Positions 20,662 through 43,842 of a DNA stretch of 64,000 nt are shown piece by piece. The translations under genes were made by a program, and so were the position numbers. How positions within the stretch are numbered: the stretch's first letter is position 1; every line of letters starts with the position of its first letter. The DNA lies in contig NZ_ML219769.1 of NCBI RefSeq assembly GCF_004765785.1, forward strand, positions 1 to 64,000. Reading direction: 5' to 3'. The DNA comes from Halorussus ruber (lineage in GTDB: Archaea; Halobacteriota; Halobacteria; Halobacteriales; Haladaptataceae). Below the pieces are notes generated by a model. It was not told where the DNA came from. It made no database searches and saw nothing but the letters and a program-made list of their open reading frames with translations.

Positions 20662-21876
20662 ATGACCAACAACATTTCTCTATCGCAAGCCCGCGACGAA
20701 ATTGATGTTCTCCGCCGGAACGAATCGGAGACGAAAAACGCGATCGAAAATGCCGCCAGCGTCGACGTAATTCGGTACCTCATCGAAGAGGAGGAGTTGG
20801 ACAAAACGCACGATGGACAGCGGGGGCTCGGGAAGATTCGAAAGGCAGTACTCAACTCCAATATAGCTCCTCGGGACGTCAAGCGTCTCGTGAGCTACCG
20901 AGGAGACGATACCCCCGAGGAGATTCTGGTTCCGGAGGAGGCTGTTCGGAATGCGACGGTGGCGCTCGAGACGGGGAAACCGGTGGTGTTGTATGGGCCG
21001 ACTGGGACGGGGAAGACGACGTTTGCGAAGCAGCTCGCGCAACGGACGTGCATCGGGTACACGTTGAATACGGCGACGCCGTCCTGGACGCCGTCGGATA
21101 TCATCGGCGGGATTTCTCCGGATACCTCCGGACGCGGAATCCAGTATCATCGTGAACTCGGATGTGTCTCGAAGGCGGTGCAACGCGCTCGGAAGTTCAA
21201 CGTGGATTACGGCGTCATCCTCGACGAAATCACGCGAGCGGATATCTCGAAGATTTTCGGTCCCCTCTACACGGCCATCGAGAATCCGCACCAGACGATC
21301 TTTGAGACGGACGATGGTGAGACGATCGAGTTGGACGAGCGAGTGAACATCATTTGTACGATGAACATGTCGGATCGGACGGTGAACGAGCTCGATGACG
21401 CGATTACGCGTCGGTTTGCGATGGTGGAACTCGACGAGTACCCCAAAGAGAACCGCCGACAACTACTGGAAGGCTGGCTCGACGACCTCGTCGAGAACGC
21501 CATCGATATCGACACGACGCGCTTGTACGAACTATTCGAGGCGGACTATCGAGGAATCAATCGCGGCCGTGAAGATACCTCGCAGGGGTCGATTATGCGG
21601 TTCGGGCCGATGCATTACCGAGACGTCGCTGCATTCATCGGGGCGGCGTGTGCTGAAGACGGCCAGTACGAAGACGACCTCGAACGGGCGGTCGGCCAAG
21701 CGTACAAAACCTTCCTCGTGCCGCGGCTCTTGAACACGGCGGCCTTCCCGCAGATCGAACGAATCGCCGAACACTATCGCCTCCTCGACGACGAGTTTAC
21801 GGCGTTCGATCTCGAGCCAGCTGTTGAAGTAGCTGAGCGACGGTTAGCTGAAGAGCGCCGTCAGCTCGGGACATAA
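20662..21876 (+). CDS. McrB-like AAA+ ATPase/GTPase
   Basis: A 404-residue AAA+ motor. N-terminal 100 residues are helical and acidic with no McrB DNA-binding domain. Walker A: LYGPTGTGKTTFAKQLAQ (about residues 111-128); Walker B: YGVILDEITRADISKIFG; sensor I and signature: IICTMNMSDRTVNELDDAIT followed by RRFAMVEL, close to the McrB pattern MNTADRS...ALRRRF. McrB oligomers hydrolyse GTP to move DNA towards the McrC nuclease. The mcrC-like gene starts 6 bases later, so they form one operon. Modified-DNA recognition must come from the short N-terminus or the partner. Confidence 0.8.
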   Translation: MTNNISLSQARDEIDVLRRNESETKNAIENAASVDVIRYLIEEEELDKTHDGQRGLGKIRKAVLNSNIAPRDVKRLVSYRGDDTPEEILVPEEAVRNATVALETGKPVVLYGPTGTGKTTFAKQLAQRTCIGYTLNTATPSWTPSDIIGGISPDTSGRGIQYHRELGCVSKAVQRARKFNVDYGVILDEITRADISKIFGPLYTAIENPHQTIFETDDGETIELDERVNIICTMNMSDRTVNELDDAITRRFAMVELDEYPKENRRQLLEGWLDDLVENAIDIDTTRLYELFEADYRGINRGREDTSQGSIMRFGPMHYRDVAAFIGAACAEDGQYEDDLERAVGQAYKTFLVPRLLNTAAFPQIERIAEHYRLLDDEFTAFDLEPAVEVAERRLAEERRQLGT

Positions 21877-21882
21877 TCCTCG

Positions 21883-23754
21883 ATGAGTTCCATGGACGAA
21901 CGGATTGCAACTTCGGTCGGGCGAGGAGAGCCTGCGAGTAGTGTCGACGCCGTCTACGAATACGACCCGGAGATTCGGACGTATCCGATTCCGGAGCGGG
22001 GGACGATAGAGATTCGGGACTGTCCCGAGAGTATCGACCGTCAGATAGAACGGGCATCGTTTACTGTGGAGGCCCAGGGGCTGTATCGGAAGAGTCAGCA
22101 GGCTATCGGGCCAGCAGAGGAGGGTCGGGAGTACGAGGTCCTCACGATTCGGCTTCACGACGGTGGGTCGACCCTTCGGATAGACGCGACCGACCTAGTT
22201 GGCACAGTCAGTATCACTCCGAACGCGACTGTGCGGATCGACCCGAAGGTCGATTGGGAACACATCTTCGATATGCTGTTGGCGGTCTACGAGCAGAAGC
22301 GGTCCGCGGAGTACCGAGGAGTTCCGACGGATCAAGTTCTCGAAGACGGGACGGACCTCAAAGACGTCCTCGTTATACTCGCAATCAACTTCCTCGATGG
22401 GCTGTCGACAATCCGGCGGCGCGGATTCATTCGGGACCTCAACGTTTGCCGCGTCAACGACATGGACGGGCGTGGCCAGATTGACCTCGAGCAGACGCTG
22501 TTGAATCAAGCCCACGGGAAGCTACAGCCCCAATGGATTCAGAACGAAGTCGACTACGACAACGCGGCCAACTCGCTCCTGCAGTACGCTGGCAGAACGC
22601 TGCTACGGTTGTTTCAAGACGGCGCTCGGGACGACTGGTCCCGACAGCACCAACGGATATATTCGGAGTTAGACCGCGAGGTGGCTCGTCTCGAAGAGAT
22701 GGGTGTAACGAGCGATGCACAGCGCGTCGGAGACTACCACGAACTCTCGGTAGAAGATTTACCTCGGCAACGCCGCTACTACGCTGACGCCCTCTACGTC
22801 TCGAAGACGATCCTCTCGTCGTCGCTTGGCCACCAATTTAGCGACGGTCGATACGAGCTGTCCGTCGACTACGTGATGAACATGGAGTCGCTGTTCGAGG
22901 AGTACTCGCAGGTGGTCCTCGAAAACCAGCTTGACGAGATCAGCGGCTACGATTATTTGGGGGCGACGTCGGAGGTAGCGATGCGTGGGTCGCCGACGGT
23001 TACGCCGTTCGAGGGCGAGGGGGACGTGTTCCACCAACCGGATCACGAATTGATCGAGGGTGACGAGACGCTCGCAGTACTCGACTCGAAGTACTACGCC
23101 GAGGGGAAAGACCCCGTCAAACGGTCACCGTCCCGGTCGCGGCTGTTCAGCTACGCGTATCTGCTTGAGGCTGACGAGCTTGGGTTCCTGTGTCCGTTGA
23201 TGGAGCCGAAAGAGCGAACGGTCGTGCAGTCGGATGCTCGTCTCCGCGTGGTTGCGCCGCAGACAGACGCGGGGTTTTCGCCGAGTGCGTACGAGGCTGC
23301 GATTCACGATTACCTCTTTGCTGTTCTCGTGGAAGAGGAGCCAGCGCTCGAAATCATGCGGGAAGTCGAGGGGCCGACCCCGGACGGTATCGAGACCGCT
23401 ATCTGTCTGGAGGGGGTCGATGCTACCGCGCTCCCGGAAGTCAAGTCGATGAGCGGCCCGTTCGCGTATCGGAACAAGCGCCAGTTCTCTTGGAGTATCC
23501 TCCAGATGGCGGGGCGACTCTCGTGGTTAGCGGGGAACATCACCGAATTCGAGGACGAGGGGAATTGGGCGCGCGACCAAATCGAACTCGAACTCGACGA
23601 CCGGTCACCGTACGCCTACACGTGCGTCCCCGTGTTTTGCTCGGACCGAACGCGGAGCGAGGAGTGGATTGACCTGTACTTCATCAATACCGGCGACGAC
23701 GGCTCCGTCGAATCGGTCCGGGTCGACCTTCGGACGGAGCCGAGTCCGCCCTAG
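21883..23754 (+). CDS. McrC-like PD-(D/E)XK endonuclease subunit
   Basis: A 623-residue protein, longer than E. coli McrC. The N-terminal half has the McrC-type beta domain (ATVRIDPKVDWEHIFDMLLA). The nuclease core is at about residues 385-410: VFHQPDHELIEGDETLAVLD followed by SKYY, i.e. PD...D-x-K. The C-terminal 150 residues (FAYRNKRQFSWSILQMAG and beyond) have no recognised fold. With the preceding ATPase it should cut DNA carrying foreign modifications. Its last 4 bases overlap the convergent gene at 23751. Confidence 0.8.
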   Translation: MSSMDERIATSVGRGEPASSVDAVYEYDPEIRTYPIPERGTIEIRDCPESIDRQIERASFTVEAQGLYRKSQQAIGPAEEGREYEVLTIRLHDGGSTLRIDATDLVGTVSITPNATVRIDPKVDWEHIFDMLLAVYEQKRSAEYRGVPTDQVLEDGTDLKDVLVILAINFLDGLSTIRRRGFIRDLNVCRVNDMDGRGQIDLEQTLLNQAHGKLQPQWIQNEVDYDNAANSLLQYAGRTLLRLFQDGARDDWSRQHQRIYSELDREVARLEEMGVTSDAQRVGDYHELSVEDLPRQRRYYADALYVSKTILSSSLGHQFSDGRYELSVDYVMNMESLFEEYSQVVLENQLDEISGYDYLGATSEVAMRGSPTVTPFEGEGDVFHQPDHELIEGDETLAVLDSKYYAEGKDPVKRSPSRSRLFSYAYLLEADELGFLCPLMEPKERTVVQSDARLRVVAPQTDAGFSPSAYEAAIHDYLFAVLVEEEPALEIMREVEGPTPDGIETAICLEGVDATALPEVKSMSGPFAYRNKRQFSWSILQMAGRLSWLAGNITEFEDEGNWARDQIELELDDRSPYAYTCVPVFCSDRTRSEEWIDLYFINTGDDGSVESVRVDLRTEPSPP

Positions 23755-24143
23755 AACGGCGTGGTGTACCAACTACCGGTTTGGTCTTTCGGCTTGATTT
23801 GACGGCCGAACACCTCGTGGAGCGGATAGATTTCGCCCTCGTGGAAGATGTCGAACGCGACTTGGCCACGGTGGATGTCGGCGTCGATCTCGAACTGAAC
23901 CATCGGCGTCGGGTCGGCGTTCTCCAAATCGTCGGCTTTCCGGTCCATCGCCCGCGAAAGTTCGTCGATGAAGGACTCGTCGTCGTAGGCGTCCTCGAGT
24001 CCCACGACAGTAACCTCCTCGGGTACGTCGTCGTCTTCGAGGCGTTCGAGGAACTCGTCAACTGGAATCTGGTAATCGACCGTCTCGTAGTCCCCCGCGG
24101 TAACGATGTTGTAGACCCCACGAAGTCGGCCTGCTTCAGGCAT
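23751..24143 (-). CDS. small defence-island protein of unknown function
   Basis: A 130-residue, very acidic soluble protein starting MPEAGRLRGVYNIVTAGDYE. The ATG at 24143 is chosen because upstream sequence is not coding-like and TACATACTTACC-type sequence lies about 40 bases before it. It contains VDEFLERLEDDDVPEEVTVV, a helical middle with SFIDELSRAMDRKADDLENA and a C-terminal part rich in aromatics (DIFHEGEIYPLHEVFGR). No family recognised. It lies tail to tail with the McrC gene (4-base overlap) and may be an accessory or inhibitor in the island. Confidence 0.55.
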   Translation of the reverse strand: MPEAGRLRGVYNIVTAGDYETVDYQIPVDEFLERLEDDDVPEEVTVVGLEDAYDDESFIDELSRAMDRKADDLENADPTPMVQFEIDADIHRGQVAFDIFHEGEIYPLHEVFGRQIKPKDQTGSWYTTPF

Positions 24144-24661: not shown

Positions 24662-27340
24662 TCAGTAGTTCGTCAGGTCCCGGTTCCCGAGGACGCGCTC
24701 GTAGGTGTCGTCGTCGGTCGCCGCGGCGAGTCGGGACGCGAGGTCGCGGATGTCCTGCCCGGTGGTCCACTTCTCGACGTAGTTGCCCACGGTCTTGCCC
24801 TCCTGATAGCGGTAGCGCAGGAACTGGAGTTTGTCGAGGTTGGTGAGGTGGTCGCCACCCTCGCCGTTGACCCGCTCCTGAATGTAGGCCTTCCGCGCGT
24901 CGTTGTCCCACGTCCCGAGTTCGAAGCCGTCGTCTTGGGTGTAGAGGCGCATCTCCTCTAGCTCCTCGGGCGTGGCGCTGGTCCCCCGGCAGAGCTTGTT
25001 CACGTCGTCGTAGGAGGGGTCCGGCGTCTTGAGGAGGTCCACGAACACGTCTTCGATGCCCTCGTCGCTGGCCTCTTGGATGATGCCGTAAATCTTCTCC
25101 ACCACGTCCTTGGCGTCCAGAATCTCGCCGTCGTGCTGGACCTTGCCGTGGTGCTTGGAGTACTCGCGGAAACACTCGCCCATCTCGATGACGCCGATGT
25201 CGCCCAGCGAGAGGTCGCGGTTCTCCTCTAACTTCTTGCGCGTCTCGCGGGCGGTGTCGTAGATGTTCCGTCTGAGGTCGTTCCACGAAATTGCGGTGCG
25301 ATTCTCTGCGGGCCGAGCGACCACGACGATGTCGAACGAGACGGATTCACCTTCGAGGAATTTAGTGAGGTCCGCCGAGACGGGATACGTCGCGGTGACG
25401 GTGAAACCAACCTCACAGAGTGCTTCCAGCAGTTCACCCCACGACTCAGAGTCGCTATGGTGGTAAGTGAAGGTGAGTGCCCCGTCGTCCTTCAGCGCAC
25501 GCCGAACTGTGGAGAACGCCTGTTTCAACTCGGATTCGAAGTCATCTATTTCCTTATCTGAGGCGGGATTGACCACGATGCTCTCCGCCCGAGGAGTATG
25601 TTCTGTCTCAAAGCAGTCGTAGTCATCTTCAAGTACCTCCTTTAGCCAGACATAGAAGAAATCGGATAGTTCGGAATAGAGAACGTTATTGTAGTACGGC
25701 GGGTCGGTGATGACCAAATCGTACTCGTTTTCGGCGTCGATGAGTCGAGAATCTCCTTGGGTAACTGTCGCGTTTTCTCCGACTGGCTGGCGAAACGGGG
25801 CTGTTTCCCTCGTTTCTCCGTCTTCAACGACCCGTTCTGTGGGGTTTCGTCCGTACTCAACACCAGCTTTAACCATATCGAACGACGCCGTGAAGGTACC
25901 CCGACCGTATTTTGTCCCCCAGATGTTGTTCTCTGCGGGATATAGCGGTGGCTCAAACGAGTTGCTTCGGAAAATGTGGTCAACGCCGTTTCTGGTGGAG
26001 TCGTAAGAAGTCATCATGCAGTTCGTCCGCAGGGAGTCCGAAATTGCCAGATAAAGATACTCCTTAACATCGTCCTGAGCGGCGTTTTCTGATGCTCTAA
26101 GGAGTTTAGACAAGCAAAGTAACTGCCGCTCATTGTACATATCGGTCCATTTCTCGTACCCGTGGCTAGGCAGATTACCGTTGCCTCCCATCGACCCATC
26201 GAACTGGGTCGCGTCGGTCTTCCATCCGGGTCGAATCGGCTTGTCAGGGACGTACTGTCGGAGTTCGTCGGACTCCTCCCACTCCTGTTTGGCCTCTTCG
26301 AACAGTTCTTTGTCGGCCTCCTCGGCCGTCTTGTAGCCTTTCACCTCACTCCTCTCGCACCCCTGTTCGTCGCAATGTGGGCAGTAGTATTCGACCGCGT
26401 AGAGTCGAATGTCGAAGCCACCCTGCTCTTCAATCGTGTCGGTGACGGGGTACTTCTGGCCGCAGTCGGGACAGATGTAGTCTCCGTAGTCGATGTGACC
26501 CTCTTTCGGAGTAAACTCGTGACCACACTCCGAGCAATCGCACTCACTCTGCCAGTCGTCAACCAGCACGACCTCCTCGCAGGCCGGGCAAAGGACGTTG
26601 TACTTGTCGTCGTTGTCGTACCGACCCGCCGCGACTCGGAAGTCTCGGTACAGCGGAACGGTAGCATCGCAGGAAACACAGTCCAACTCCTTGACCCAGA
26701 AGTTGTACATCACGTCGGCGTCGTGGTCCCCGTTCGGGCACGGCGTCTTGTAGTACTGGGTAATCTCGTCGGCCACGTCGTCGCGGACCTCCTCGAAGGC
26801 CGATTCGAGTTCGTCGAGGTCCGTCTGGCCCGCTTCGAGTTCCTTCTTGGTGACGAACCACGCCACCGGATTGAGGTCGTTGCCGACGACTTCCGCGCCG
26901 AAGCGCGAGGCCTCGACCAGCGAGGTGCCGCCGCCCATGAAGGGGTCCAGCACCTTCTTCTCCTCGACGGTCACGTCCTTGGGGTAGAGTTCCCAGAGGC
27001 TCTCGGGGTCGGTCATATCGACCTGCCCGAGGAGGTCCGCTACGTCTGTCTCGCCGTAGTCGAAGTCCGCGAGCGTCTCGTTCTCCTGTCCGGGGTCGTT
27101 CACCGAGACCTTCTCAGGGTCGTCCAGCAGGGTGTACAGCGAGATTGCCCGGAACACGCATCCGAGACGGCGCGCCCACCACTTGTGCATGGTGTAGATG
27201 GGCCGGTAGTACATCTTGGCGCGACTCTCCTTCTCGGCGATCTCGTTGATGCGCTCGATTGGAAACCCGCGCTCGATTGGCAGTTCGGTCCGCTCGCGGT
27301 CCGACTGTTCGGTCTCGCTCTCTGAATCTCGGCTAGGCAT
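24662..27340 (-). CDS. DUF1156-type adenine methyltransferase A
   Basis: An 892-residue DNA N6-adenine methyltransferase of the DUF1156 kind. The N-terminus ELPIERGFPIERINEIAEKE with MHKWWARR is the DUF1156 signature; DPFMGGGTSLVEASRFGAE (about residues 132-150) is SAM-binding motif I; a zinc-ribbon region with five CxxC pairs follows at 195-320; the catalytic DPPYYNN is near residue 545, and TFTYHHSDSESWGELL lies beyond it. The C-terminus (YGIIQEAS, DDVNKLCRG, LDKLQFLRYRY) is conserved in all three paralogues here. It starts 5 bases after the DUF499 gene, so the two form an operon. The centre (about 25550-26140) is A+T-richer than both ends. Confidence 0.85.
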   Translation of the reverse strand: MPSRDSESETEQSDRERTELPIERGFPIERINEIAEKESRAKMYYRPIYTMHKWWARRLGCVFRAISLYTLLDDPEKVSVNDPGQENETLADFDYGETDVADLLGQVDMTDPESLWELYPKDVTVEEKKVLDPFMGGGTSLVEASRFGAEVVGNDLNPVAWFVTKKELEAGQTDLDELESAFEEVRDDVADEITQYYKTPCPNGDHDADVMYNFWVKELDCVSCDATVPLYRDFRVAAGRYDNDDKYNVLCPACEEVVLVDDWQSECDCSECGHEFTPKEGHIDYGDYICPDCGQKYPVTDTIEEQGGFDIRLYAVEYYCPHCDEQGCERSEVKGYKTAEEADKELFEEAKQEWEESDELRQYVPDKPIRPGWKTDATQFDGSMGGNGNLPSHGYEKWTDMYNERQLLCLSKLLRASENAAQDDVKEYLYLAISDSLRTNCMMTSYDSTRNGVDHIFRSNSFEPPLYPAENNIWGTKYGRGTFTASFDMVKAGVEYGRNPTERVVEDGETRETAPFRQPVGENATVTQGDSRLIDAENEYDLVITDPPYYNNVLYSELSDFFYVWLKEVLEDDYDCFETEHTPRAESIVVNPASDKEIDDFESELKQAFSTVRRALKDDGALTFTYHHSDSESWGELLEALCEVGFTVTATYPVSADLTKFLEGESVSFDIVVVARPAENRTAISWNDLRRNIYDTARETRKKLEENRDLSLGDIGVIEMGECFREYSKHHGKVQHDGEILDAKDVVEKIYGIIQEASDEGIEDVFVDLLKTPDPSYDDVNKLCRGTSATPEELEEMRLYTQDDGFELGTWDNDARKAYIQERVNGEGGDHLTNLDKLQFLRYRYQEGKTVGNYVEKWTTGQDIRDLASRLAAATDDDTYERVLGNRDLTNY

Positions 27341-27345
27341 CTCGG

Positions 27346-30300
27346 TTACTCCTTCCGGAACTCCATCTCGATTTGAATGTCTGTCGCGTTCTCCGGAACC
27401 TTGTCGAACAGCCGCGAGAACACCGTGTACTCTTGGTCGGACTCCAGCGTCATGTCCACGTGCGTCCGTTCGATTGCGGCGATATCCCGCATCTCCTCGG
27501 GGACGCCATCCGACTCGGGAAGGACGAATCGAATCGAACCGTAGTTGAGCAGTCCCTCTTGGTGTTCTTGCCGCCACCGCTTGCGCATCTTCGTCGGACT
27601 ATCGAACTCGTGATCGAAGTCCCACGTATCCTCGCCATCACCCGGCGTCTTGAACGGGTAGCCGTTCATCCAGTCGCTCGGGTCTGTCGAGCCGTTCGTC
27701 CCGATCTTGTACTTGGGCTCCGTATCCTCCCCTAGATTCTGGAGGAGGAACGTCTGGACGGCGGCCTCGGAGACGGAGCTGCCGAACCGTTCGCGGACGT
27801 CCGTCACCGTGAACTTCGTTTTCGGGTCCAAGTTGTCGATGTATTCGAGGATCTCCTCGCCGACGCGGTTCGAGACCGTGGGTACCAGCGTGACGCTGGT
27901 CGGGTCACGACTACCGAGGTCGGAGAGGTATCGACGGCCCGCCTCAAGAACGTAATTCTCGGTGAGGCAGTCGTTCACGACTTTCAGGACCGCCGTGTTG
28001 GTTTGGTCCGGCGGCAGGAACACGTCCGAATCGCCCCGGATGTCGCGGAGAATCCGGTCCATGCTCGCTCGGCCATCGGCGGTGATAGTCTCGTCGACCC
28101 GCGCTCGAATCTCTGACGGCCCGATGATGTCCGCCTCGGAAACGTCCCGAATCGCCGCATCGAGCTTCGGTTTGTCGAGGACGGTCGTTCCCCGGACGAC
28201 GATGTAGGCGTCGTCGTTCGTGAGGCGGCCGACCGCCATCATGAGCTTGTCTTTCTCGTCGCCCTCGATTCGGACCTCCGTCTGCGTGAGGAGGTCCTCG
28301 TAGTACTCGGCAATGTCGATCTCGTTCGTATCACCGCTAAACTGGGTTCGGAGGTCCTCCTCGATGTCGTCGATGTCCCACGTCTCGACCGGGCCGGAGT
28401 GGATGATGGTCGTCTTGGGCGTGAGGTCTTCGAGAGTTTCCGCGAACCCGCCGTCTTTGGTGTGGATGAGGACGGGTTTCTCTTCGAGCGCCGCCTCCGC
28501 CGCGTCGATGACGTCACCGACGCTTCCGGGGATGGGATAGCTCGGTCGGCGGAGGAACTCCTCGTACGCGTCTTCGGGCGTGATTTTGCCTTTCCGGTCG
28601 AGGAGGTCCTCCACGATGGTCCAAGTCGGCTCCTCCAAGTCGAACGGGTCGGCGGAAGCTTCCGAAGCGATGTTGCGGGCGCTGTACTCGTCGCCCTCGA
28701 AGACGAAGACGTCGAGCGCCATCGGTTTCGCGTCGTCGAACCCGTTGAGGAGGTCGTCGCCGTCGATGACTTCGCCGTACGCTCGGCGGAGCTCTTTCCG
28801 GAGTTCCTCTGCTTCTTGGCTTTTCATCGCCTCGATGGTGGTCCGGATGTTCTCGTCGAGGGCGTCGTCGGCGAGGACTTGGCGTGCGCCTTCGACGTAG
28901 CGGGCTTTGTCGATGTAGCGAGTGCCGGATTCGATGGCTTCGTCTTCGACCGGCTGGACGAACACGAAGGTGTTTCGCCAGTTCCGACCGCGGCCGTCGT
29001 CCGTGATGACGCGCTTGACTTCGTCTTTCGTCCATTCGCTGTCTTTGACGACGACTTTGATGTCCCGAGAGTCGGGGATGTCTCGGATGTCGTCGGTGCG
29101 GAAGCCGACAGTATGTGTGCCGGGTCCGAAGAGTTCGCCGACGATTTCCGCGATTTCCCCTTTTGCAGACCGTTCGGAGACGTCGCTGGCGGCGTTCCGG
29201 ATGAGCGCGTTGGGGTTGCGCTTCTCTCGGATGGCGAATTTGCCGTTGAGTTTGTGGAGGTGCCACGCGACGCCGTGGAGCTGTTCGAGGTTGATGTAGA
29301 TGTCCGAGATGCGGTCGTTGGTCTGGTACGCCCCCATGACGATTTGGGAGACCTCGGCTCCTTCGCCGTGGCTGTCGTTCAGCGAGTAGAGCAGAATCGT
29401 GTTGAGAATGCGGCGTCCGTATTCGACTTCGTCTCCAACGCGGCTTTTGATGTCGGAGATGCACGCGGACGGTCGCTCGAAGTTGATTTTCGAGAGTTCG
29501 TCTTCGAACCGTTCGGCATCGACGTTGCCGTGCGTAATCAAGTCCGTCTCGTCACGGAGTTCCAGGAGGAGGGTGGAGAAGAGATATATCATCCCGCGCG
29601 TGTTCTGGTTGTCTTCGTTCTCGTAGTAGCGGGATTCGAGTGCTTCGATGAGTTCGGGGTGTAACGGGTAGGTCTCCCGCATGTCCTCTCGGAGGCTGGG
29701 TTCGACCTCGACGTAGTCCGAGGTCTCGTAGGCATCGACGTATCCATTGACGATTTCACGAGCGCGCTCGGTCTCGACGTCGTCGATGAGTCGGTGGAGC
29801 AGGACGTCGCGCTTGCTCACTTTACTGCTCATGTTCACTTCGACGGCGTCCTCGCGGTCGAGGATGTTGTGAACCTTCGAGCCCTTCCGGAGAACGGAGA
29901 CGATAGTATAGAGTTCGAGGTCAGGAAGTGCCGTGGCTTCGAGGAGCGCTTGGAGGAAGGCCCGGTTTGCGCTTTCGTGTTCGTCGTCGAGGGTGTCGTA
30001 CCAGTCTTCGAGTTCGTCGGCGATGAACGCGACTGTCTGGTCGCCGACGGCTTCTTCGATGGTCTGGACGTCGGGATAGCCGCCGGTCTCGAACGAACCG
30101 ACGTCGTAGTCGAGTTCCTCGAAGAATGGCTCCCAGAGATAGTCGTAGTCGTTGTTTTCGTACTGCATTGCGACGGTAATCGGGACTGCGTCTTCGGGGA
30201 GCGCATCGCCGAGTCCGTCGATGTTTCCGTCCGCCCATTCGGAGGCGGCGTCGGGGTTGTTGAAGCAGTGATAGAGAGCCACCATCTGGTGGGACTTCCC

Positions 30301-30561: not shown

Positions 30562-30671
30562 GTGAATGTTCGGATGATGAAGTAGGTACTGCATAAGTAC
30601 TGCGGTGCACGAATCCAAATTCACAACACCGGCCAGCTAGAACAAAAGCGGGGAGAAAACGGGGGCTGGTG

Positions 30672-33347: not shown

Positions 33348-33373
33348 GTTAGTGCAACCTGTGGCGGCACCGT

Positions 33374-33380
33374 TCATAAA
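33374..33380 (-). promoter_or_regulatory. TATA box of methyltransferase B
   Basis: TTTATGA on the minus strand, 27 bases upstream of ATG 33347, implying a leaderless message and excluding the upstream in-frame ATG. Confidence 0.6.
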
Positions 33381-35324: not shown

Positions 35325-35326
35325 CG

Positions 35327-36580: not shown

Positions 36581-37037
36581 GTTGCTGGTTCGCTGGTTCG
36601 GTTTGGCTTCGTTCGCGCGGGTACCGGGCCGCGTCGGGAGTGCCTCCTCGGGTGGCGTTTCCGGAGAGTGCAGGCGTTCACCCGTTCGGCCGCGAGTGCG
36701 ACAGCCTCGTCTGGAGGAGTCTCCTCGCGCTCCGATTCTAGCGAGTCCTGCCCGGTTGACAGTCGGGCGCGGGTCACCCATTCGCAACCCGACGCCGCCG
36801 TCTCTCCTCCTCCGTCAGAAGCCTCGCCGTGAGCGTCGGCGAGGTGATTCGGAGCCGCGAAACGGACGGGACGGGTTCCACGAACGGACTCACGAGCGGC
36901 GACCGGGTGTGGAAAGAAATGAAATTAATCGTTTAACAATTCAAAAACATGCTTGAATCGGGGTGTGCGGTGCCGTAACCGGCGCGGGTGATTCGACAGG
37001 AATCGCCGCATTCGGCGGGATTCATCATTCATGCATC
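36581..37037. other. non-coding gap before methyltransferase C
   Basis: About 450 bases with no convincing gene. A perfect 8-bp hairpin (CCTCGCCG, 7-base loop, CGGCGAGG) lies at 36822-36844 and could be a terminator for the helicase operon. An A+T-rich segment at 36915-36960 precedes the next promoter. Confidence 0.5.
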
Positions 37038-37044
37038 TTTATGA
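37038..37044 (+). promoter_or_regulatory. TATA box of methyltransferase C
   Basis: TTTATGA 32 bases upstream of ATG 37076; the in-frame ATG at 37031 lies before this box and cannot be the start. Confidence 0.6.
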
Positions 37045-37075
37045 AGGGACTGTTCGACTACACGGGTACCTAGCT

Positions 37076-39757
37076 ATGACGGACGATTCTGGCCGGACTG
37101 AACTCCCAATCGAACGCGGGTTCCCTATCGAGCGCATCAACGAAATCGCCGAGAAGGAGAGCCGAGCGAAGCAGTACTATCGGCCGATTTACACCATGCA
37201 CAAGTGGTGGGCGCGACGCCCCGGCAGCGTCTTCCGCGCCATCTGTCTCTACACCCTCCTCGACGACCCGGACGACGTGTCCGTCTACGAGCCGGGCGAG
37301 AACCAGTCGCTCGCCGACTTCGGCGAAGGCTCCGACGAGATTCAGGAACTCATCGAGAACGTAGACCAAGCCGACCCCGAGAGCCTCTGGAAGCTCTACC
37401 CCAAGGACGTTCGCGTCGAGGAGAAGAAAATCCTCGACCCCTTCATGGGCGGCGGTACCTCGCTGGTCGAGGCCTCGCGCTTCGGCGCGGAGTCCGTCGG
37501 CTACGACTTGAATCCCGTCGCGTGGTTCGTCACCAAGAAGGAACTCGAAGCGGGCCGGACGGACGTAGAGGAGCTACAGGCCGCGTTCGAGCAGGTGAAA
37601 GACGACGTGGCCGACGAGATTACCCAGTACTACCGGACGCCCTGCCCCAACGCCGACGTGGACGAGGAGGCCGCCGACAACGACGACCGCCTCGACCACG
37701 GTCACGACCACGAGGCCGACGTGATGTACAACTTCTGGGTGAAGGAACTAGACTGTACGGCGTGCGGGCACACGGTCCCGCTGTTCAAGGACTACCGCGT
37801 GGCGAAGGGTCGGTACGACAACGACGACAAGTACAACGTCCTCTGTCCCGACTGCGGCGACATCGTGCTGGTGGACGACTGGCAGAGCGAGTGCAGTTGC
37901 TCGTCGTGTGCCCACGAGTTCGTTCCCAAGGAGGGCAATACCTCCGGAAGCAAGTACACCTGTCCTGACTGCGGCCAGAAGTACGGCATCACCGACGCGA
38001 TTCAGGAACAGGGTGGCTTCGACTTGCGACTCTACGCAGTAGAGTACTACTGTCCCACATGCGACGAACATGGTTCTCGAAGTGACGCAAAGGGATATAA
38101 GCCAGTAGGTGAATTTGACGAAGCATTGTTCTCCGAGGCCGCATTCGAGTGGGAAGAGAACGAGGAATTACACGAGTACGTTCCTGACGAAGAGATACCC
38201 AAAGGGCACCTGACTTCGGACCGGAATCCTGTCTTCGACCACGGCTACAAAGACTGGACAGATATGTACACAGAGAGACAGCTTCTCGCGCTCTCAAAAC
38301 TTATGCGGTCCATCGAGGAGATTGATTCCCAGAATGCGAAGGAGTACGTTCTTCTCGCCCTATCTGACTCGATTATGTTCCAGAATCTCTTCACGATGTA
38401 CAACTATACCGGGAATAAGATTGAGTCTGCACTTCATCGGATGAAGGCGTTCCCGCCTCAGAATGACATGATTGAGGCGAACGTCTGGGGAACGAAGTAC
38501 GGCAGGGGGACATTCGAAAAAACATGGGACATGGTAATCTCTGGTGTTGAGTATGCTCACGCTCCTACTGAGCGTCACGTTGAAAATGGCGAGAACAGAG
38601 AGACCGACTCCTACAAACAACCGATTGGGAAAAACACGGACATATACCGTGGGGATATGCGGCTTATCGAGGACGAAAACGAGTATGACGCCGTCATCAC
38701 CGACCCACCGTACTACGACAACGTCATCTACTCGGAGGTGGCCGATTACTTCTACATCTGGCAAAAGATACTCCTCGAAGGCGAATATGAGGGCTTCGAT
38801 GCTGAGAAAACTCCTCGCGCAGAATCTATCGTCACAAATCCCTACCTCGACAAAACTGCCGAAGACTTCGAACACGAGATGGGACAGGCACTTGAAGTCA
38901 TCAACAACGCGCTGGTAGATGATGGTGTTCTAACATTCACGTACCACCATGCTGGGTCTGAATCGTGGGGTGAATTGCTAGAATCGCTCTGCGATAACGG
39001 ATTTGAAGTGACTGCAACGTACCCGATTTCTTCGGACCTTGCTAAGTTTATCGAGGGCGAAGCAGTCGCGTTCGACATTGCAGTCGTCGCTCGTCCCATC
39101 GAAGAACGAGAACCGATTACGTGGCGGAATCTCCGGCGCAACATCATCAAAACCGCCCAAGAGACCCGCGAACAACTCGAAGAAAATCGAGACCTCAAGT
39201 CCGGCGACATCGGCGTCATCGAGATGGGCGAGTGCTATCACGAGTACTCGAAACACCACGGCGAGGTCCGGCGATTCGGCGACATCATGTCCGCGAAGGA
39301 CGTGGTGGACGAGATTTACGGCATCATCCAAGAGAACAGCGAACTGGGCGAAGTCGAGGTGTTCCTGAGCCTCCTCGATACGCACAACCCGACTTACGAC
39401 GATGTGAATCTGGAGTGTCGGTCGGCGAACGTCACCCCCGAGGAGTTGAAGGACAAGAAGTTGTTCTCCACGCGGGACGGATTCAGCCTCGGGACGTGGG
39501 ACGACGACGACCGCCGGGCGTACATCGAGAGTCGGGTCAACGGCACCATCGACGAGTCGCTGTCGGCGCTCGACAAGGCCCAGTTCCTGCGGTACCGCTA
39601 CGAACACGGCAAGACCGTGGGCAACTACCTGAAGAAGTGGAGTGACGACGACGACCTCCGAGAGACGTGTGAGTCGCTCGCCGAGGTGACCGACGACGAC
39701 GGATACGAGCGCATGCTCGGCGGGGACCGCTCGCTCGGAAGCTTCGACGAGGAGTGA
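37076..39757 (+). CDS. DUF1156-type adenine methyltransferase C
   Basis: An 893-residue paralogue of A and B: ELPIERGFPIERINEIAEKE, MHKWWARR, DPFMGGGTSLVEASRFGAE, zinc ribbons with five CxxC pairs (a His-rich insertion, DRLDHGHDHEADVMY, precedes them), DPPYYDNVIYSE at residue 543, TFTYHHAGSESWGELL, and C-terminal LDKAQFLRYRYEHGKTVGNY. The DNA of the zinc-ribbon region is nearly identical to A over blocks of 30 bases or more, while 38060-39110 is A+T-richer and divergent. It has its own promoter and no operon partner. It should methylate adenine in its own target site, possibly different from those of A and B. Confidence 0.85.
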   Translation: MTDDSGRTELPIERGFPIERINEIAEKESRAKQYYRPIYTMHKWWARRPGSVFRAICLYTLLDDPDDVSVYEPGENQSLADFGEGSDEIQELIENVDQADPESLWKLYPKDVRVEEKKILDPFMGGGTSLVEASRFGAESVGYDLNPVAWFVTKKELEAGRTDVEELQAAFEQVKDDVADEITQYYRTPCPNADVDEEAADNDDRLDHGHDHEADVMYNFWVKELDCTACGHTVPLFKDYRVAKGRYDNDDKYNVLCPDCGDIVLVDDWQSECSCSSCAHEFVPKEGNTSGSKYTCPDCGQKYGITDAIQEQGGFDLRLYAVEYYCPTCDEHGSRSDAKGYKPVGEFDEALFSEAAFEWEENEELHEYVPDEEIPKGHLTSDRNPVFDHGYKDWTDMYTERQLLALSKLMRSIEEIDSQNAKEYVLLALSDSIMFQNLFTMYNYTGNKIESALHRMKAFPPQNDMIEANVWGTKYGRGTFEKTWDMVISGVEYAHAPTERHVENGENRETDSYKQPIGKNTDIYRGDMRLIEDENEYDAVITDPPYYDNVIYSEVADYFYIWQKILLEGEYEGFDAEKTPRAESIVTNPYLDKTAEDFEHEMGQALEVINNALVDDGVLTFTYHHAGSESWGELLESLCDNGFEVTATYPISSDLAKFIEGEAVAFDIAVVARPIEEREPITWRNLRRNIIKTAQETREQLEENRDLKSGDIGVIEMGECYHEYSKHHGEVRRFGDIMSAKDVVDEIYGIIQENSELGEVEVFLSLLDTHNPTYDDVNLECRSANVTPEELKDKKLFSTRDGFSLGTWDDDDRRAYIESRVNGTIDESLSALDKAQFLRYRYEHGKTVGNYLKKWSDDDDLRETCESLAEVTDDDGYERMLGGDRSLGSFDEE

Positions 39758-39789
39758 CCGGCGTCCGAATCTCGTCCCTCGCGGGGGAG

Positions 39790-41193
39790 CTACGAGGGGG
39801 CCTCCTCGGAGGAATCGGCGTACAGGCGTTCGAGCTGCGTCCGGAGTGACTCGGCGAGCGACCCGGCTTGGGTAATGCGGATTGGATGGTGGTCAACGCG
39901 CGTGTTGATGCGGCGGTCGTCGTCGGTGACGAGCAGTCCGTTCTCCTCTCCTCGCCAGTCGTCTGCGGCTGGATTACCGAAGACGAGTTCCTCGTCGTGA
40001 CGCATGTAGGCGAGGTACTCGAGGAGTTCTCGAACGCCGCGCTCGACGGTATCCTTGCCCGACCGCCCCGAGCCGTGATACTTCGCCTCGACCACTAACG
40101 ACCGCTGCGGGTCGATGGAGCCGTCGCGTTCGTAGACGACGAGCACGTCCGGGCGTTTCGTCCTGACTTGCGACCCGGCGTCGAAGAGGTCACCGGCTAT
40201 CTCTTTGGTTCGTGTTCGTATCGCTTCCCGTCGCGTCACCGACGCGGCGTCTACGTCGGCCGTATCACCGAGGAACGAGAACTGTTTCGACCGGGCCGCC
40301 TGTTCGTAAAATACGGAGATGTGGTCGCCGTTGTCGAGTTCGAAGGAACCGACGGCGTCACGGTTAGTCTGAATCGGTGCGAGCTCACCGTCAGTTCCGA
40401 GTATCTCCTCTAACGTCTCGATGACGGCGAAGAGCACGTAGAGTTCGAAGAGCGTGCTGTACTGCTGGTCGGGTGAGTGGCCGCTGTCGGTTGGAACGAT
40501 GAGCGTATTCGACAGAAGATCTGTCAGAAGCTCTCGGTCAACTTCGGTCGAGAGGAGTTCTTCGTAGCGGAGGTAGCGTTCGGCAGCGTCTCGGTAGAGT
40601 GCGTGCCGTGACCGAGACGCGGTTTCGAGCATCGCGTTCGTCGGTTCGCCGGTATCCGGGTCGCGGATTCGGTCGAGATTGACGTTCCCCTCGATTGTCT
40701 GGCGCGTCCGACCGAGGAGCTGTTCGCCCCATCTGCTCCCCCAATCGTACGTGGCTAATTCGTCCGCCCACGTTTCCAGGCCCGCGTCGAGTCGTTGGAG
40801 CAGCGCGCGCAGGACGATGTTCTCGTCGAGGTCGTACTCTTCGTATCGGGACTGGGTGACGAACACCGTTTGGTCATCGGGGTCCCGGCTATACCGCTCC
40901 CGAATCGTCTTGCTCCAATCAACCCGGCTTGAGACTTCTGAATGGGTGATGTTCTCCTCGGTTGACGTTCCCGTCCGGAGTTCACGAACCCGCGGGCGCA
41001 ACTCTTCGGCGAACGCGACGGTGTCTGCTTCCAGCAAGTAATGGAGGATGAGTAAATCGTCAAACCCGGCGATGCGTTCACCGAACGCAGCCTCAGCTAA
41101 CGCACCACCGATGACGTCACTATTGAGCTCCCCCGAGAGGACGTACAGCTCCAGATTCTCGGCCACCGCGTCGATCAATTCCTCGGGCTTCAT
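39790..41193 (-). CDS. PD-(D/E)XK nuclease partner of the EVE-McrB protein
   Basis: A 467-residue protein. The N-terminal 300 residues are helical; the C-terminal part has a restriction-endonuclease core: TKRPDVLVVYERDG, then RSLVVEAKYHGSG (D...E-A-K, about residues 360-390). Its start lies 15 bases after the stop of the McrB-like gene, so it takes the position of McrC in this second two-gene unit though its sequence is unlike the McrC at 21883-23754. It would cleave DNA on activation by the ATPase. Confidence 0.7.
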   Translation of the reverse strand: MKPEELIDAVAENLELYVLSGELNSDVIGGALAEAAFGERIAGFDDLLILHYLLEADTVAFAEELRPRVRELRTGTSTEENITHSEVSSRVDWSKTIRERYSRDPDDQTVFVTQSRYEEYDLDENIVLRALLQRLDAGLETWADELATYDWGSRWGEQLLGRTRQTIEGNVNLDRIRDPDTGEPTNAMLETASRSRHALYRDAAERYLRYEELLSTEVDRELLTDLLSNTLIVPTDSGHSPDQQYSTLFELYVLFAVIETLEEILGTDGELAPIQTNRDAVGSFELDNGDHISVFYEQAARSKQFSFLGDTADVDAASVTRREAIRTRTKEIAGDLFDAGSQVRTKRPDVLVVYERDGSIDPQRSLVVEAKYHGSGRSGKDTVERGVRELLEYLAYMRHDEELVFGNPAADDWRGEENGLLVTDDDRRINTRVDHHPIRITQAGSLAESLRTQLERLYADSSEEAPS

Positions 41194-41208
41194 GCGATAG
41201 CTCCTCGT

Positions 41209-43842
41209 CTATCCGCGGAATTGTTCCTTCGCTGCGGTCTCGATTCGCTCGGTACTCACTCGGGACAGCGACGCTAGCTTCTCGATTACGTCGTCGCGTC
41301 GTCGGTCGAGCATCCCCTCCATCTGCGGGAACGCGTACGCCACAACCGCATCTGCAACTGCACGATTACGTTGTTCCTTCGTCGCACGTGGGAGTCCTGC
41401 GACGTACCCTAGCATGTCTTCCGCGATGGCAGGCCCGAGACTCCGGGCATGCTCGTCTTCGTTCATAATTCGCCACGCCGAGAGCACGCCAGCCACCACG
41501 GGACTTTGCGGTTCAAGGTCGATATCCTCCCACTCGGCCAGATACCCCGCGATGAACTCCTCCGGCGTCGGGGCTGCGTCTTCGGCGTCAGGAATCTCGG
41601 GAGCGCCGACCCGGATGAACGTGAACCGACGCATGAACGCGTAGCTCATGTCGTACAGCGACGTTTTGTCGTAGCTGTTCATCGTGGCGAGCAACCGCCA
41701 CGAGTCAGGCACGATAAACTCTTCGAGCGGGAGGTCCGTTCCGCCCGATTCGCTACTGTCGTCGTCTTCGTCACCGTCAGTAGGAGCATCTTCCGCTTGT
41801 GCTGGCCGGACGAGAATCTCGTTCTCCTGCTTTGTCTCGTAGGGAAGTTGGACGTGTTGGCCGGAGAGAACAGTAAACAACTGGCCGAACGCCTTGTCGA
41901 TATCCGACCGATTGATCTCGTCGATGACGGTCACGTCGTTTCGTTGCCGACCGTCCTGCTTGAACCGGCGGAGGAGCTGGCCCGGCTGGAATTTGAGTTC
42001 GCGGTCACCCTCGCGCGACGGCATGTAGCCGCCAATCGTCTCGAATGTCGACCAGTCGGCAGTTGCAGTAGTGAGATGCGTACCAGTATAGACGTCGTAT
42101 TCGTCGGCGAGATGGGTTGCGACTTGTTCCGCGAGTTCCGTTTTCCCGGTTCCGGGTGGGCCGGTGAAGACGATGTGGTTCCCTGCGTTGAGTGCAGCCT
42201 CGATTTGCTGGAGGAGTCCATCGAGGCTGATCGCCATCGTCTCAGGGAAGTGCAAGCCGTCGATCGTTTCCGGTGAGACGTCTATCTCGGGGGTAGCGGT
42301 GACGTCTAGCTTCGTGTCCTCGTCTTCACGTTCTCCTGGACCGAACTCGTTGAGACGGTCGAATTTCGGCTTGACCAATTCCAGTTTGGTTTCGACGCGG
42401 TCCCATCGGAGGACTTCGTTTGGTCGGTCGACACGGGTGAGATCGCGGATGGATCGCCAGTCGCTGGTGCGGAGATCTTTCCCGATGTTGAGACCGTACT
42501 GGACGTAGTTGTGGTTGATGCCGAGATAGAGTTGGTAGTGGTCCTTGTGGGATTCGCCTTCTTCGGGTTTCGGGTAGACACAACACCATCCGAAGTTCCC
42601 GAGTTTCTGCATCGACCCCATGTAATCGACGACATGCGTCTCTAAGTTCTCACCGTCAGCAAGGGTCAGGAGCTCCTCACAGAGAGAGTCGAAATGATGT
42701 CGCAGACGCGGCTTGAGGAGGTCATAGTACACACCGCCGAGGATTGCGTATGGACGCCATCCGTTTGTGATGTTACGGTCGTACTGCTGGTTGACCTCTT
42801 GTTCGTCTTTCTCGTATGCACGCTTGGTAAGTCGATTGCTCGCGTGCCGGTCAAGCGCCTTGACCCGGATTTCGTTAATCGGACTCTCCTCGGTGTCTTT
42901 GTTCCGCCAATACGCACAGAAATCCGCCGGCAGCTCGTCGTACAAATCATCGTAGACTGAAACGACGTCTCGTGGCCCTTCTTCGTGATCAGGGTCAATG
43001 GCGTGGAGGTGCGCAGACACGTCCCAGAGATGGTTCAGCAAGTAATCGGCGGTAAGATCCGGAAACGTCCCGAGTCCAAGTTCTCGCCCGAGGGCGGCGA
43101 TGGTGTCTGGGGCGACATCGACGCCACACCGCTCCTCGAGCGCGATGGAGATTTCACTACTCCAAGTGTCAACTAAGTCCTCGGCTTCGTCGGTGGTGAA
43201 GTCCATCGAGGTGCCATGGTCGTTGTGCGTCGTCCCGCGATATGGCCCCCAATTACAGAAGTACTCAACTAGCCCCTCTGCGGCAAGAACAGCCTCCTCG
43301 GGAGTTGGGTCCGCTTTCAGCTCACCGAACAACCAGAGCGCGGACTGAATCGCGGGAAGGTCAAAATAATACCCTTCAGATTCCACGTGAGGGCGAGACT
43401 GGTCGGGTGTTGGTCGATCAATCGTCCGAGCCCGTGCCCGAATCTCCTCGACTAGCGCTTTCGGAGTTCCCGAATCGATCTTCCGGTACGTGCTATCGAA
43501 TGACGGACCGTCGTAACCGAGTTTCTCTGCTGCCGTGGCGCTACTAATCGCGTTGTCCGAGTCGAGGAGGTAATGCCACGCGACGGGGAGGTGATATTCC
43601 GTGTGTTCGCGTTCGTAGACTCGGCTATCTGGGTCAGTCGCAGTCGTGTACTCGCCGGTTCGGATAGTTCCGTACCCGATAATGCCAGCCCCGTTGAGGA
43701 ACGAAAATACCTTGTCGCCTTCTGTTGCGCGTTGCGGAAACCGGTCTTTATCACCGTACGTCGATACGAATCCCTCGTGAAGCGGTTTCCGGCCATCATC
43801 CGGGAGGTGTCTTTTATTGGTGTTCACCCACCAGTACGTCAT
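41209..43842 (-). CDS. McrB-like AAA+ ATPase with EVE-like N-terminal domain
   Basis: An 877-residue protein. Residues 1-90 (MTYWWVNTNKRH, GDKVFSFLNGAGIIGYGTI) have the pattern of an EVE/PUA-like domain, which in defence proteins reads modified bases. A 450-residue helical middle follows. The AAA+ domain has Walker A FTGPPGTGKTELAEQVATHL (about residues 570-590), Walker B VTVIDEINRSDIDKAFGQL, sensor WRLLATMNSYDKTSLYDMSY and FMRRFTFIRV. This is a McrB-like motor with its own modification reader, upstream of a nuclease gene. Likely a type IV, modification-dependent restriction system. Confidence 0.75.
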   Translation of the reverse strand: MTYWWVNTNKRHLPDDGRKPLHEGFVSTYGDKDRFPQRATEGDKVFSFLNGAGIIGYGTIRTGEYTTATDPDSRVYEREHTEYHLPVAWHYLLDSDNAISSATAAEKLGYDGPSFDSTYRKIDSGTPKALVEEIRARARTIDRPTPDQSRPHVESEGYYFDLPAIQSALWLFGELKADPTPEEAVLAAEGLVEYFCNWGPYRGTTHNDHGTSMDFTTDEAEDLVDTWSSEISIALEERCGVDVAPDTIAALGRELGLGTFPDLTADYLLNHLWDVSAHLHAIDPDHEEGPRDVVSVYDDLYDELPADFCAYWRNKDTEESPINEIRVKALDRHASNRLTKRAYEKDEQEVNQQYDRNITNGWRPYAILGGVYYDLLKPRLRHHFDSLCEELLTLADGENLETHVVDYMGSMQKLGNFGWCCVYPKPEEGESHKDHYQLYLGINHNYVQYGLNIGKDLRTSDWRSIRDLTRVDRPNEVLRWDRVETKLELVKPKFDRLNEFGPGEREDEDTKLDVTATPEIDVSPETIDGLHFPETMAISLDGLLQQIEAALNAGNHIVFTGPPGTGKTELAEQVATHLADEYDVYTGTHLTTATADWSTFETIGGYMPSREGDRELKFQPGQLLRRFKQDGRQRNDVTVIDEINRSDIDKAFGQLFTVLSGQHVQLPYETKQENEILVRPAQAEDAPTDGDEDDDSSESGGTDLPLEEFIVPDSWRLLATMNSYDKTSLYDMSYAFMRRFTFIRVGAPEIPDAEDAAPTPEEFIAGYLAEWEDIDLEPQSPVVAGVLSAWRIMNEDEHARSLGPAIAEDMLGYVAGLPRATKEQRNRAVADAVVAYAFPQMEGMLDRRRDDVIEKLASLSRVSTERIETAAKEQFRG

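What the first reader, a model, noticed from the sequence alone, without database searches (positions are those of the whole stretch)
20662..43842. Compound defence island with three DUF1156 methyltransferases, DUF499 ATPase, Snf2 helicase and two McrBC-like pairs
Seen: an unbroken 23-kb block with no core gene, holding McrB-McrC, DUF499 ATPase plus methyltransferase A, methyltransferase B, Snf2 helicase plus coiled-coil zinc protein, methyltransferase C, and EVE-McrB plus nuclease. Known: DUF499 with DUF1156 enzymes and Snf2 helicases occur in phage-defence loci, and McrBC cuts modified DNA. Inference: this is one composite system or three stacked ones in which host methylation must escape both modification-dependent nucleases. 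I recall no named system with three parallel DUF1156 enzymes and these partners.
Basis: partly seen in the sequence, partly recalled or inferred. Interest (0 to 1): 0.75.

Follow-up and report, generated by a model that had tools for sequence, protein, structure and literature searches.

The report
BREX-like archaeal defence with McrBC nuclease
A salt-loving archaeon carries a conserved gene set, probably a virus defence and recurring in many of its relatives, in which a BREX-like methylation system seems to have exchanged its usual nuclease for an McrBC-type one and can hold one, two or three exchangeable DNA methylases.

Summary
Most of the block is one recurrent haloarchaeal system, not three stacked ones. 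Its core is McrB, McrC, an overlooked ~130-aa protein (23751-24143), one to three DUF1156 methyltransferases, a DUF499 ATPase, a short Snf2 helicase and a coiled-coil/zinc protein. Of 31 full-length DUF499 relatives in 194 Halobacteria genomes (own included), 30 have this helicase and this McrB within 25 kb. All 30 loci also have McrC, zinc protein and methyltransferase; 29 have the small protein. Core genes co-vary (Mantel r 0.75-0.98), methyltransferases less so. Nine of 30 loci carry several methyltransferases. The second McrB/nuclease pair is accessory.

The nearest known kind is the DUF499-centred BREX-related (BR) system, Type-3. Each of the 14 weaker DUF499 relatives in the same genomes has a PglZ-like gene beside it; none of the 31 does. 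The DUF499 tree nests the McrBC type among PglZ types, suggesting that McrBC replaced PglZ as effector. The zinc protein resembles the RapA C-terminus (middling score), so helicase plus zinc protein may be a split BrxHII. Function, methylation motifs and complex formation are untested. New variant of a known kind.

The parts
20662..21876 (+). McrB-like AAA+ GTPase (core); ATG start 20662, ORF from TTG 20602
   Evidence: PF07728 6.2e-18; Walker A and NxxD GTPase motif in 30 of 30 loci, own included; 30 of 31 DUF499-clade loci have it
21883..23754 (+). McrC-like nuclease (core)
   Evidence: PF10117 3.5e-14; PD...DSK nuclease motif in all 30 aligned
   Evidence: 29 of 30 loci; homologues in 13 of 13 PglZ-type loci read (hit table); AlphaFold2 pLDDT 90.7 for the best of five models, weak P-loop NTPase-like matches, Z up to 5.2
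24662..27340 (-). DUF1156 DNA methyltransferase A
   Evidence: PF06634 2.4e-9; DPPYY motif; start
27346..30624 (-). DUF499 AAA+ ATPase (core)
   Evidence: PF04465 9e-12; Walker A pattern in 29 of 30 loci
30672..33377 (-). DUF1156 DNA methyltransferase B
   Evidence: PF06634 1.2e-8; DPPYY motif
33486..35324 (+). short Snf2/RapA-like helicase, no nuclease domain found (core)
   Evidence: PF00176 1.8e-33, PF00271 6.8e-26; best PDB sequence match RapA 3.2e-39
35327..36580 (+). coiled-coil/zinc protein, candidate split-off C-terminal part of a BrxHII/RapA-like helicase (core)
   Evidence: 30 of 30 loci; model aligns with E. coli RapA 696-968 over 254 residues, Z 9.6, rmsd 7.9; two CxxC pairs
37031..39757 (+). 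DUF1156 DNA methyltransferase C
   Evidence: PF06634 1.6e-11; DPPYY motif
39790..41193 (-). accessory protein with a PD-(D/E)XK-like motif (by eye), partner of the next gene
   Evidence: no family hit; recurs beside the second McrB in G097/L114, L117, G124
41209..43842 (-). accessory McrB-like GTPase with long N-terminal part (EVE not confirmed)
   Evidence: PF07728 3.4e-16 at residues 556-740; no Pfam hit in the first 166 residues

Best explanation
20662-39757 is one restriction-modification-like antiviral system of haloarchaea, related to the DUF499-centred BREX-related (BR) systems, with McrBC in place of PglZ as its nuclease. Proposed working: the DUF1156 methyltransferases each mark a different DNA motif on the host chromosome (probably N6-methyladenine). 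The DUF499 ATPase and the small iSTAND-like protein assemble a surveillance complex on DNA. When unmarked sites are met, the split BrxHII/RapA-like helicase (Snf2 gene plus coiled-coil/zinc gene) remodels or moves along the DNA, and the McrB GTPase with the McrC nuclease cuts it. Several methyltransferases serving one restriction core would widen or change the set of targets. Shown here: recurrence of the gene set, co-variation, conserved catalytic motifs, the either-or pattern of PglZ and this McrBC beside DUF499, and divergence of the three methyltransferases in the stretch before the catalytic motif. Inferred: antiviral function, methylated base and motifs, complex formation, and that McrC is the effector.
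For: Recurrence: of 31 full-length DUF499-clade hits in 194 genomes, 30 have this Snf2 clade and this McrB clade within 25 kb; 30 of 30 Snf2-clade hits lie beside such a DUF499; 30 of 36 McrB-clade hits do. All 30 loci have McrC, zinc protein and at least one methyltransferase, 29 the small protein. Strands are conserved in 29 of 29 loci tested. Co-variation: Mantel r 0.75-0.98, p 0.0005 for all 15 core pairs over 29 loci; methyltransferase against core 0.46-0.64 in 21 single-methyltransferase loci, and r 0.23 (p 0.09) against DUF499 in the 17-locus subgroup. Either-or: a PglZ-type profile of 11 rows hits 14 places in the 194 genomes, one beside each of the 14 weaker DUF499 hits and none beside the 31; own genome 0 (3 of the 14 were not in the profile). 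It also hits no ORF of the 30 McrBC-type or the 44 named loci. McrC: no hit in the 13 PglZ-type loci read. The DUF499 tree nests the McrBC type with five PglZ-type loci (1.0) and makes it one clade (0.947). The small protein has homologues in 13 of 13 PglZ-type loci read. DPPYY in 44 of 44 methyltransferases; A/B/C identity is lowest at residues 451-500 (0.41-0.45). Zinc protein to RapA C-terminus; Snf2 protein to RapA.
Against: McrBC of this clade also occurs without DUF499 (6 of 36 hits), so it can stand alone; one such pair (G173) branches inside the system's McrBC. Some McrBC exchange is likely: within the 17-locus subgroup McrB is the core gene least correlated with DUF499 (r 0.46), and G023 and G178 carry the other McrBC subtype. 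One full-length DUF499 relative (G143) has no other core gene in the 20 kb read around it. Three PglZ-type loci (L138, L139, L141) have other McrB-like genes nearby (16-70 bits), so the either-or pattern holds for this McrBC clade, not for any McrB. The PglZ call rests on weak family matches (PADLOC 1e-8 to 2e-5 for four; Pfam 0.001-0.03 for five, under cut-off). The Pfam PglZ model gave no hit in the own genome, but at E 0.001 it would have missed the PglZ type seen here. The RapA match is row 50 at Z 9.6 with rmsd 7.9, and long helices give such Z by chance; Foldseek alone found nothing at E 0.001. The P-loop matches of the small protein are weak and the BrxF family model did not hit the own genome. 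The 13 PglZ-type loci read show no Snf2 helicase within 20 kb, so the helicase may have come with McrBC. No experiment shows defence.
Confidence: 0.64

Rival explanations
1. Two coupled layers: a DUF499/DUF1156/helicase system that blocks unmarked DNA without cutting (as reported for PbeABCD), plus an independent McrBC Type IV enzyme that cuts modified viral DNA, kept together because viruses that evade one by modification fall to the other.
For: McrBC occurs without DUF499 in 6 of 36 hits. BREX with a Type IV enzyme in one island is known (PMC8565348, title and start of abstract in the listing). PbeABCD of haloarchaea blocks replication without cleavage (PMC6459918, passages).
Against: McrBC is present in 30 of 31 DUF499 loci, with conserved strands, and co-varies with DUF499 at r 0.90 (McrB) and 0.96 (McrC). 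The PglZ-type gene is absent where this McrBC sits beside DUF499. No reader domain for modified bases was found in the McrB N-terminus by Pfam.
Confidence: 0.25
2. Stacked defence island: independent modules (McrBC, DUF499-methyltransferase, helicase pair, second McrB pair) brought together by chance in a variable region.
For: The second McrB/nuclease pair and the spacer genes vary between loci. Flanking genes are patchy in the genus (5 of 13 and 2 of 13 genomes, own included).
Against: Six families in 30 of 30 loci; genome-level co-occurrence of DUF499 and McrB hypergeometric p 8e-27, not corrected for relatedness; congruent distances.
Confidence: 0.06
3. The extra methyltransferases are decoys or spare copies (for example against viral methyltransferase inhibitors), not new specificities.
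For: The catalytic DPPYY motif is kept in all copies (44 of 44; the SAM-motif pattern in 43 of 44), and A, B and C are 61-63% identical.
Against: The lowest identity (0.41-0.45 at residues 451-500; 0.41-0.64 over 351-550) lies between the SAM motif and the catalytic motif, where a target-recognition insert is expected (PMC12839542 section 29). A, B and C sit in three separate places of the tree.
Confidence: 0.2

Closest known systems
Type-3 BREX-related (BR) system (PMC12839542; sections 29, 33, 35 and 40 read, the rest as passages)
   Same: DUF499 ATPase, DUF1156 methyltransferase with zinc-finger Cys pairs, Snf2 helicase without nuclease, small iSTAND-like protein; DUF499 and methyltransferase score nearer to the PglZ-type loci than to the four Type-1-like ones
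   Different: No PglZ-type gene; McrB-McrC in all 30 loci; helicase apparently in two genes; one to three methyltransferases; all 44 named loci bear haloarchaeal names (patterns made from haloarchaeal proteins, so distant relatives elsewhere could be missed). The paper's main text has no word beginning 'Mcr'
Hma system (PADLOC, PMC8565338, passages)
   Same: Helicase, methyltransferase and ATPase; PADLOC HmaA 3e-60, HmaB 2.8e-36, HmaC 1.7e-13
   Different: Not a three-gene operon; helicase half the profile's length; McrBC, small protein and zinc protein added
McrBC Type IV restriction
   Same: McrB GTPase and McrC nuclease motifs conserved
   Different: Tied to a methyltransferase system; no recognised reader domain in McrB (Pfam). 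PMC11090510 (section 6 read; other passages) reports McrBC branches linked to DNA methyltransferases and to a DISARM-like system, announced for a separate paper; whether this locus is among them I could not see
DISARM / ARMADA (PMC12458937, passages)
   Same: DrmD/BrxHII-like Snf2 helicase (PADLOC DrmD 1e-82) and a methyltransferase
   Different: No YprA-like or DUF1998 (DrmA/DrmB) domain among the ten proteins scanned with Pfam

Membership tests
BR systems (PMC12839542) | DUF499 AAA+ ATPase | tested here: met
   PF04465 9e-12; Walker A in 29 of 30
BR systems (PMC12839542) | N6-methyltransferase with DUF1156 | tested here: met
   three proteins over the Pfam cut-off for DUF1156; the methylated base was not tested
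BR systems (PMC12839542) | Swi2/Snf2 helicase with BrxHII-like domains | tested here: inconclusive
   Snf2 core met; the C-terminal part seems to be the separate zinc protein (middling Z)
Type-3 BR | near-universal PglZ | tested here: not met
   PglZ-type profile: 0 in the own genome and 0 beside the 31 DUF499-clade hits, against 14 of 14 weaker DUF499 hits; 0 in the ORFs of the 30 McrBC-type and 44 named loci; Pfam PF08665 0 in the own genome, a less sensitive test
Type-3 BR | iSTAND component (82% of taxa) | tested here: inconclusive
   homologue of the small protein of PglZ-type loci and P-loop-like model (weak); BrxF model NF033453 gave no hit in the own genome
Type-1 BR | helicase fused to PD-(D/E)XK nuclease, or a nuclease nearby | tested here: inconclusive
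   no fused nuclease found in the 612-aa helicase; McrC is a nearby PD-(D/E)XK nuclease; the four Type-1-like loci have methyltransferases far from these (179-206 bits, against 487-799 in PglZ-type loci)
Hma (PADLOC) | three-gene operon HmaA-HmaB-HmaC | tested here: not met
   genes lie on both strands, with McrBC and two more core genes
McrBC Type IV restriction | McrB GTPase (NxxD) and McrC PD-(D/E)XK nuclease | tested here: met
   30 of 30 for McrB motifs; nuclease motif in all 30 aligned McrC
McrBC Type IV restriction | cleavage of modified DNA | not testable with these tools
   needs biochemistry; no reader domain by Pfam
DISARM | DrmA/DrmB (YprA-like helicase, DUF1998) | tested here: not met
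   none among the ten block proteins by Pfam

The most novel reading that the evidence does not exclude
A haloarchaeal type of BREX-related system in which McrBC, otherwise a cutter of modified DNA, has replaced PglZ and become the effector that the system's own methylation holds back, with one restriction core shared by up to three exchangeable methyltransferases of different specificity.
Probability: 0.55. Interest if true: 0.76.

Novelty: new variant of a known kind. Interest (0 to 1): 0.62.

Why it matters
What does the cutting in BREX-type immunity has been a puzzle (PMC12839542, section 40). That paper takes PglZ as the primary nuclease partly because other nucleases stand in its place in BR Types 1 and 2. 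A natural lineage in which PglZ is gone and a GTP-driven nuclease of well-studied kind stands in its place would be an independent test of that view. It would also show McrBC working for a system that spares its own methylated DNA, and a restriction core that accepts several methyltransferases. Carriers include cultured haloarchaea such as Haloferax sulfurifontis, Haloferax elongans and Haloarcula vallismortis, so it can be tested.

Tried and rejected
Three stacked independent systems: rejected for the core by co-occurrence and co-variation.

Second McrB/nuclease pair as part of the core: rejected. Relatives of this McrB at 150 bits or more appear beside the system only in G097 (= L114), G124, L117 and L127 besides the window; weaker ones (38-71 bits) in G110, G135, L116 and L119 (my count).

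Zinc protein as a PbeC relative: PADLOC gives PbeC 1.6e-4, but the matches cover the coiled coil only and vary among relatives (DndD, LmuB, JetC), so I take them as coiled-coil noise; the DrmD match in the same call is of the same sort. A sequence profile of the zinc protein lists no RapA in the PDB at E up to 10.

BrxF model (NF033453) in 97 class genomes: 3 weak hits, none over the cut-off, none in the own genome.

Pfam PglZ (PF08665) in the own genome: none, but this model scores the haloarchaeal PglZ-type proteins only 0.001-0.03, so I repeated the search with a profile of those proteins.

Foldseek of both models against the PDB: nothing at E 0.001. Families absent from the VIA lists are not excluded.

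Viral copies of methyltransferase C: no match in viral contigs by exact peptide patterns; a weak negative.

Empty insertion site in the genus: flanking genes too patchy; not followed.

Papers: in searches I saw no paper joining DUF499 with McrBC as one system. One search lists three papers with both words: PMC7641849, PMC3710099 and PMC8713573, of which I saw passages; none joins them. Most subscription papers are not held and no supplementary file was read.
Full report
What is there. The genome (4.3 Mb, 31 contigs) has no other DUF1156 hit at E 0.001. A further gene of about 130 aa lies at 23751-24143 on the minus strand, its stop overlapping that of McrC.

Is it one system? I searched 194 genomes of the class (own included) separately with the window's helicase, DUF499 protein and McrB. 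Full-length DUF499 relatives occur 31 times; 30 have both this helicase clade and this McrB clade within 25 kb. All 30 helicase-clade hits lie beside such a DUF499, as do 30 of 36 McrB hits. These 30 loci, in 28 genomes, were read: all have McrC, the zinc protein and at least one methyltransferase, and 29 the small protein (G124 lacks it). The profiles used were first built from 12 of these loci, 11 of them chosen by DUF1156 hits, plus the window; the 31 DUF499 hits themselves were found with the window's protein alone. In 29 of 29 loci McrB and McrC share a strand opposite to DUF499, the small protein lies on the DUF499 strand, and helicase and zinc protein share a strand. A scan of one genome per species for DUF499 relatives gave 44 confirmed loci, all with haloarchaeal names (patterns from haloarchaeal proteins). 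Within the DNA held (flanks up to 10 kb, often cut by contig ends) 41 have a methyltransferase hit, 35 the helicase, 33 the zinc protein, 36 the small protein, 30 McrC and 27 McrB. Several of the 44 are the same records as G loci.

Co-variation. Pairwise distances of the six core proteins over 29 loci correlate at r 0.75 to 0.98 (15 pairs, each p 0.0005 by permutation; shared ancestry contributes). Methyltransferases of the 21 single-methyltransferase loci follow the core less well (r 0.46-0.64), and within the 17 closest loci their correlation with DUF499 is 0.23 (p 0.09), against 0.46-0.86 for core genes. So the core travels together and the methyltransferase is exchanged more freely.

Several methyltransferases. 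Of 30 loci, 21 have one, three have two (G036, G081, G097) and six have three, if the broken one of G135 is counted. The 13 PglZ-type loci read show one each. The window's A, B and C are 61-63% identical and sit in three separate places of a 44-row tree (A beside the methyltransferase of G016; B and C each on their own branch, B's place at 82/68 support), so they are not a recent tandem duplication. Identity among them is lowest at residues 451-500 (0.41-0.45) and low over 351-550 (0.41-0.64), between the SAM motif and DPPYY; other inner windows run from 0.52 to 0.84. A target-recognition insert is expected in that stretch from PMC12839542. All 44 have DPPYY; 43 have the SAM-motif pattern. Different specificities are likely but not shown. 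A and C are closer to each other in the first 350 residues, B and C at 551-700: a mosaic.

What is it related to? The weaker DUF499 relatives in the same class (28-32% identity, 14 hits) lie in compact cassettes: DUF499, a protein of about 300 aa, a methyltransferase, and a homologue of the small protein. I read 13 of the 14. The 300-aa protein of four loci is best matched by PADLOC PglZ models (1e-8 to 2e-5); Pfam PglZ lies under its cut-off (0.001-0.03, five loci). A profile of 11 of these proteins, searched over all 194 genomes, hits 14 places: one beside each of the 14 weaker DUF499 genes (three of which, G104, G124 and G174, were not in the profile), none beside the 31 full-length ones, none in the own genome. 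Five genomes (G024, G036, G065, G083, G124) hold both types. These cassettes fit the Type-3 BREX-related systems of PMC12839542 (standalone PglZ and iSTAND; section 33), except that I saw no Snf2 helicase within the 20 kb read; three of them have another McrB-like gene nearby. In a DUF499 tree rooted on four Type-1-like loci, the McrBC type is one clade (0.947) joined with five PglZ-type loci (1.0), eight other PglZ-type loci branching outside. The simplest reading is a PglZ-bearing ancestor in which McrBC took PglZ's place; it depends on the root. The methyltransferase tree also has the McrBC type as one clade (0.96); its PglZ-type node is unresolved (0.265).

The unknown parts. The small protein's best model (pLDDT 90.7; the other four scored 61-72) has strands in an order that, by my reading, fits a P-loop fold with three extra strands after the fourth, as described for iSTAND. 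The rows of its VIA list are, by their names, P-loop NTPases, but at Z 3.6-5.2, which is weak. The zinc protein's model (pLDDT 83.2, pTM 0.59) aligns with E. coli RapA 696-968 over 254 residues, by far the longest alignment in the list, at Z 9.6 and rmsd 7.9. The helicase's best PDB match by sequence is RapA. PMC12839542 describes the C-terminal part of BrxHII as RapA-like with a coiled-coil insert (passage). Helicase plus zinc protein therefore look like a BrxHII-type helicase split in two; moderately supported.

How it most likely works. Methyltransferases mark self; the DUF499 ATPase and small protein form the scanning complex; the split helicase and McrBC act on unmarked DNA. McrB (Walker A, NxxD) and McrC (nuclease motif) keep their motifs in 30 of 30. 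McrB has only about 110 residues before its Walker motif and no Pfam domain there, so I think it is directed by partners rather than by modified bases. This step is inference. Rivals: McrBC as an independent second layer, and extra methyltransferases as spares.

Accessory pair. The second McrB and its partner at 39790-43842 recur beside a methyltransferase of the system in G097 (= L114), G124 and L117. They look like cargo that joins a methyltransferase gene.

What is known. Hma (PMC8565338, passages) and BR systems (PMC12839542) cover the DUF499-DUF1156-Snf2 core. PMC7641849 (passages) noted DUF499, a methyltransferase and an Snf2 helicase-nuclease with EVE proteins; PMC3710099 (passages) a DUF499-type ATPase fused to HEPN. 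PMC11090510 (section 6) reports McrBC branches associated with DNA methyltransferases and a DISARM-like cassette, left for another paper. I saw no text that joins McrBC with DUF499 as one system (searches named under Tried and rejected), but supplements and subscription papers are out of reach. Hence a new variant of a known kind.

Noticed in passing
L075, L076, L077, L078, L079, L086: A sister helicase (52-57% identical) is followed by a protein whose first ~400 aa are a zinc-protein homologue fused to ~700 aa of cysteine-rich sequence, in a six-gene cassette conserved in 6 of 7 loci compared; in the one locus tested (L075) its ~980-aa gene matches PADLOC PbeA (2.3e-42). None of 9 such helicases lies near the full-length DUF499.
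   Followed up: partly
window 39790-43842; L114, L117; G097, G124: A second McrB-like GTPase plus PD-(D/E)XK-like partner recurs next to a DUF1156 methyltransferase of the system, as if carried with it.
   Followed up: partly
window 24662-39757 (methyltransferases A, B, C): The three methyltransferase genes are a mosaic: A and C are most alike in residues 1-350, B and C in 551-700, and C is inverted relative to A and B.
   Followed up: no
L134-L146: Haloarchaeal PglZ-type cassettes (DUF499, PglZ-like, methyltransferase, small protein) show no Snf2 helicase within the 20 kb read, unlike the Type-3 BR description; three (L138, L139, L141) have another McrB-like gene nearby.
   Followed up: no
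L039 11015-14368 (G135): One methyltransferase of a three-gene locus is in two pieces (347 and 512 aa), with a 210-aa ORF between them.
   Followed up: no
L125: Halocatena pleomorpha has the DUF499 protein followed directly by a zinc-protein relative, with no other core gene found in the 23 kb held.
   Followed up: no
window 19693-20057: A 175-nt direct repeat (76%) just left of the block, origin unknown.
   Followed up: no
window 2001-4000: GC falls to 46%, against 53-67% from 4 kb on.
   Followed up: no
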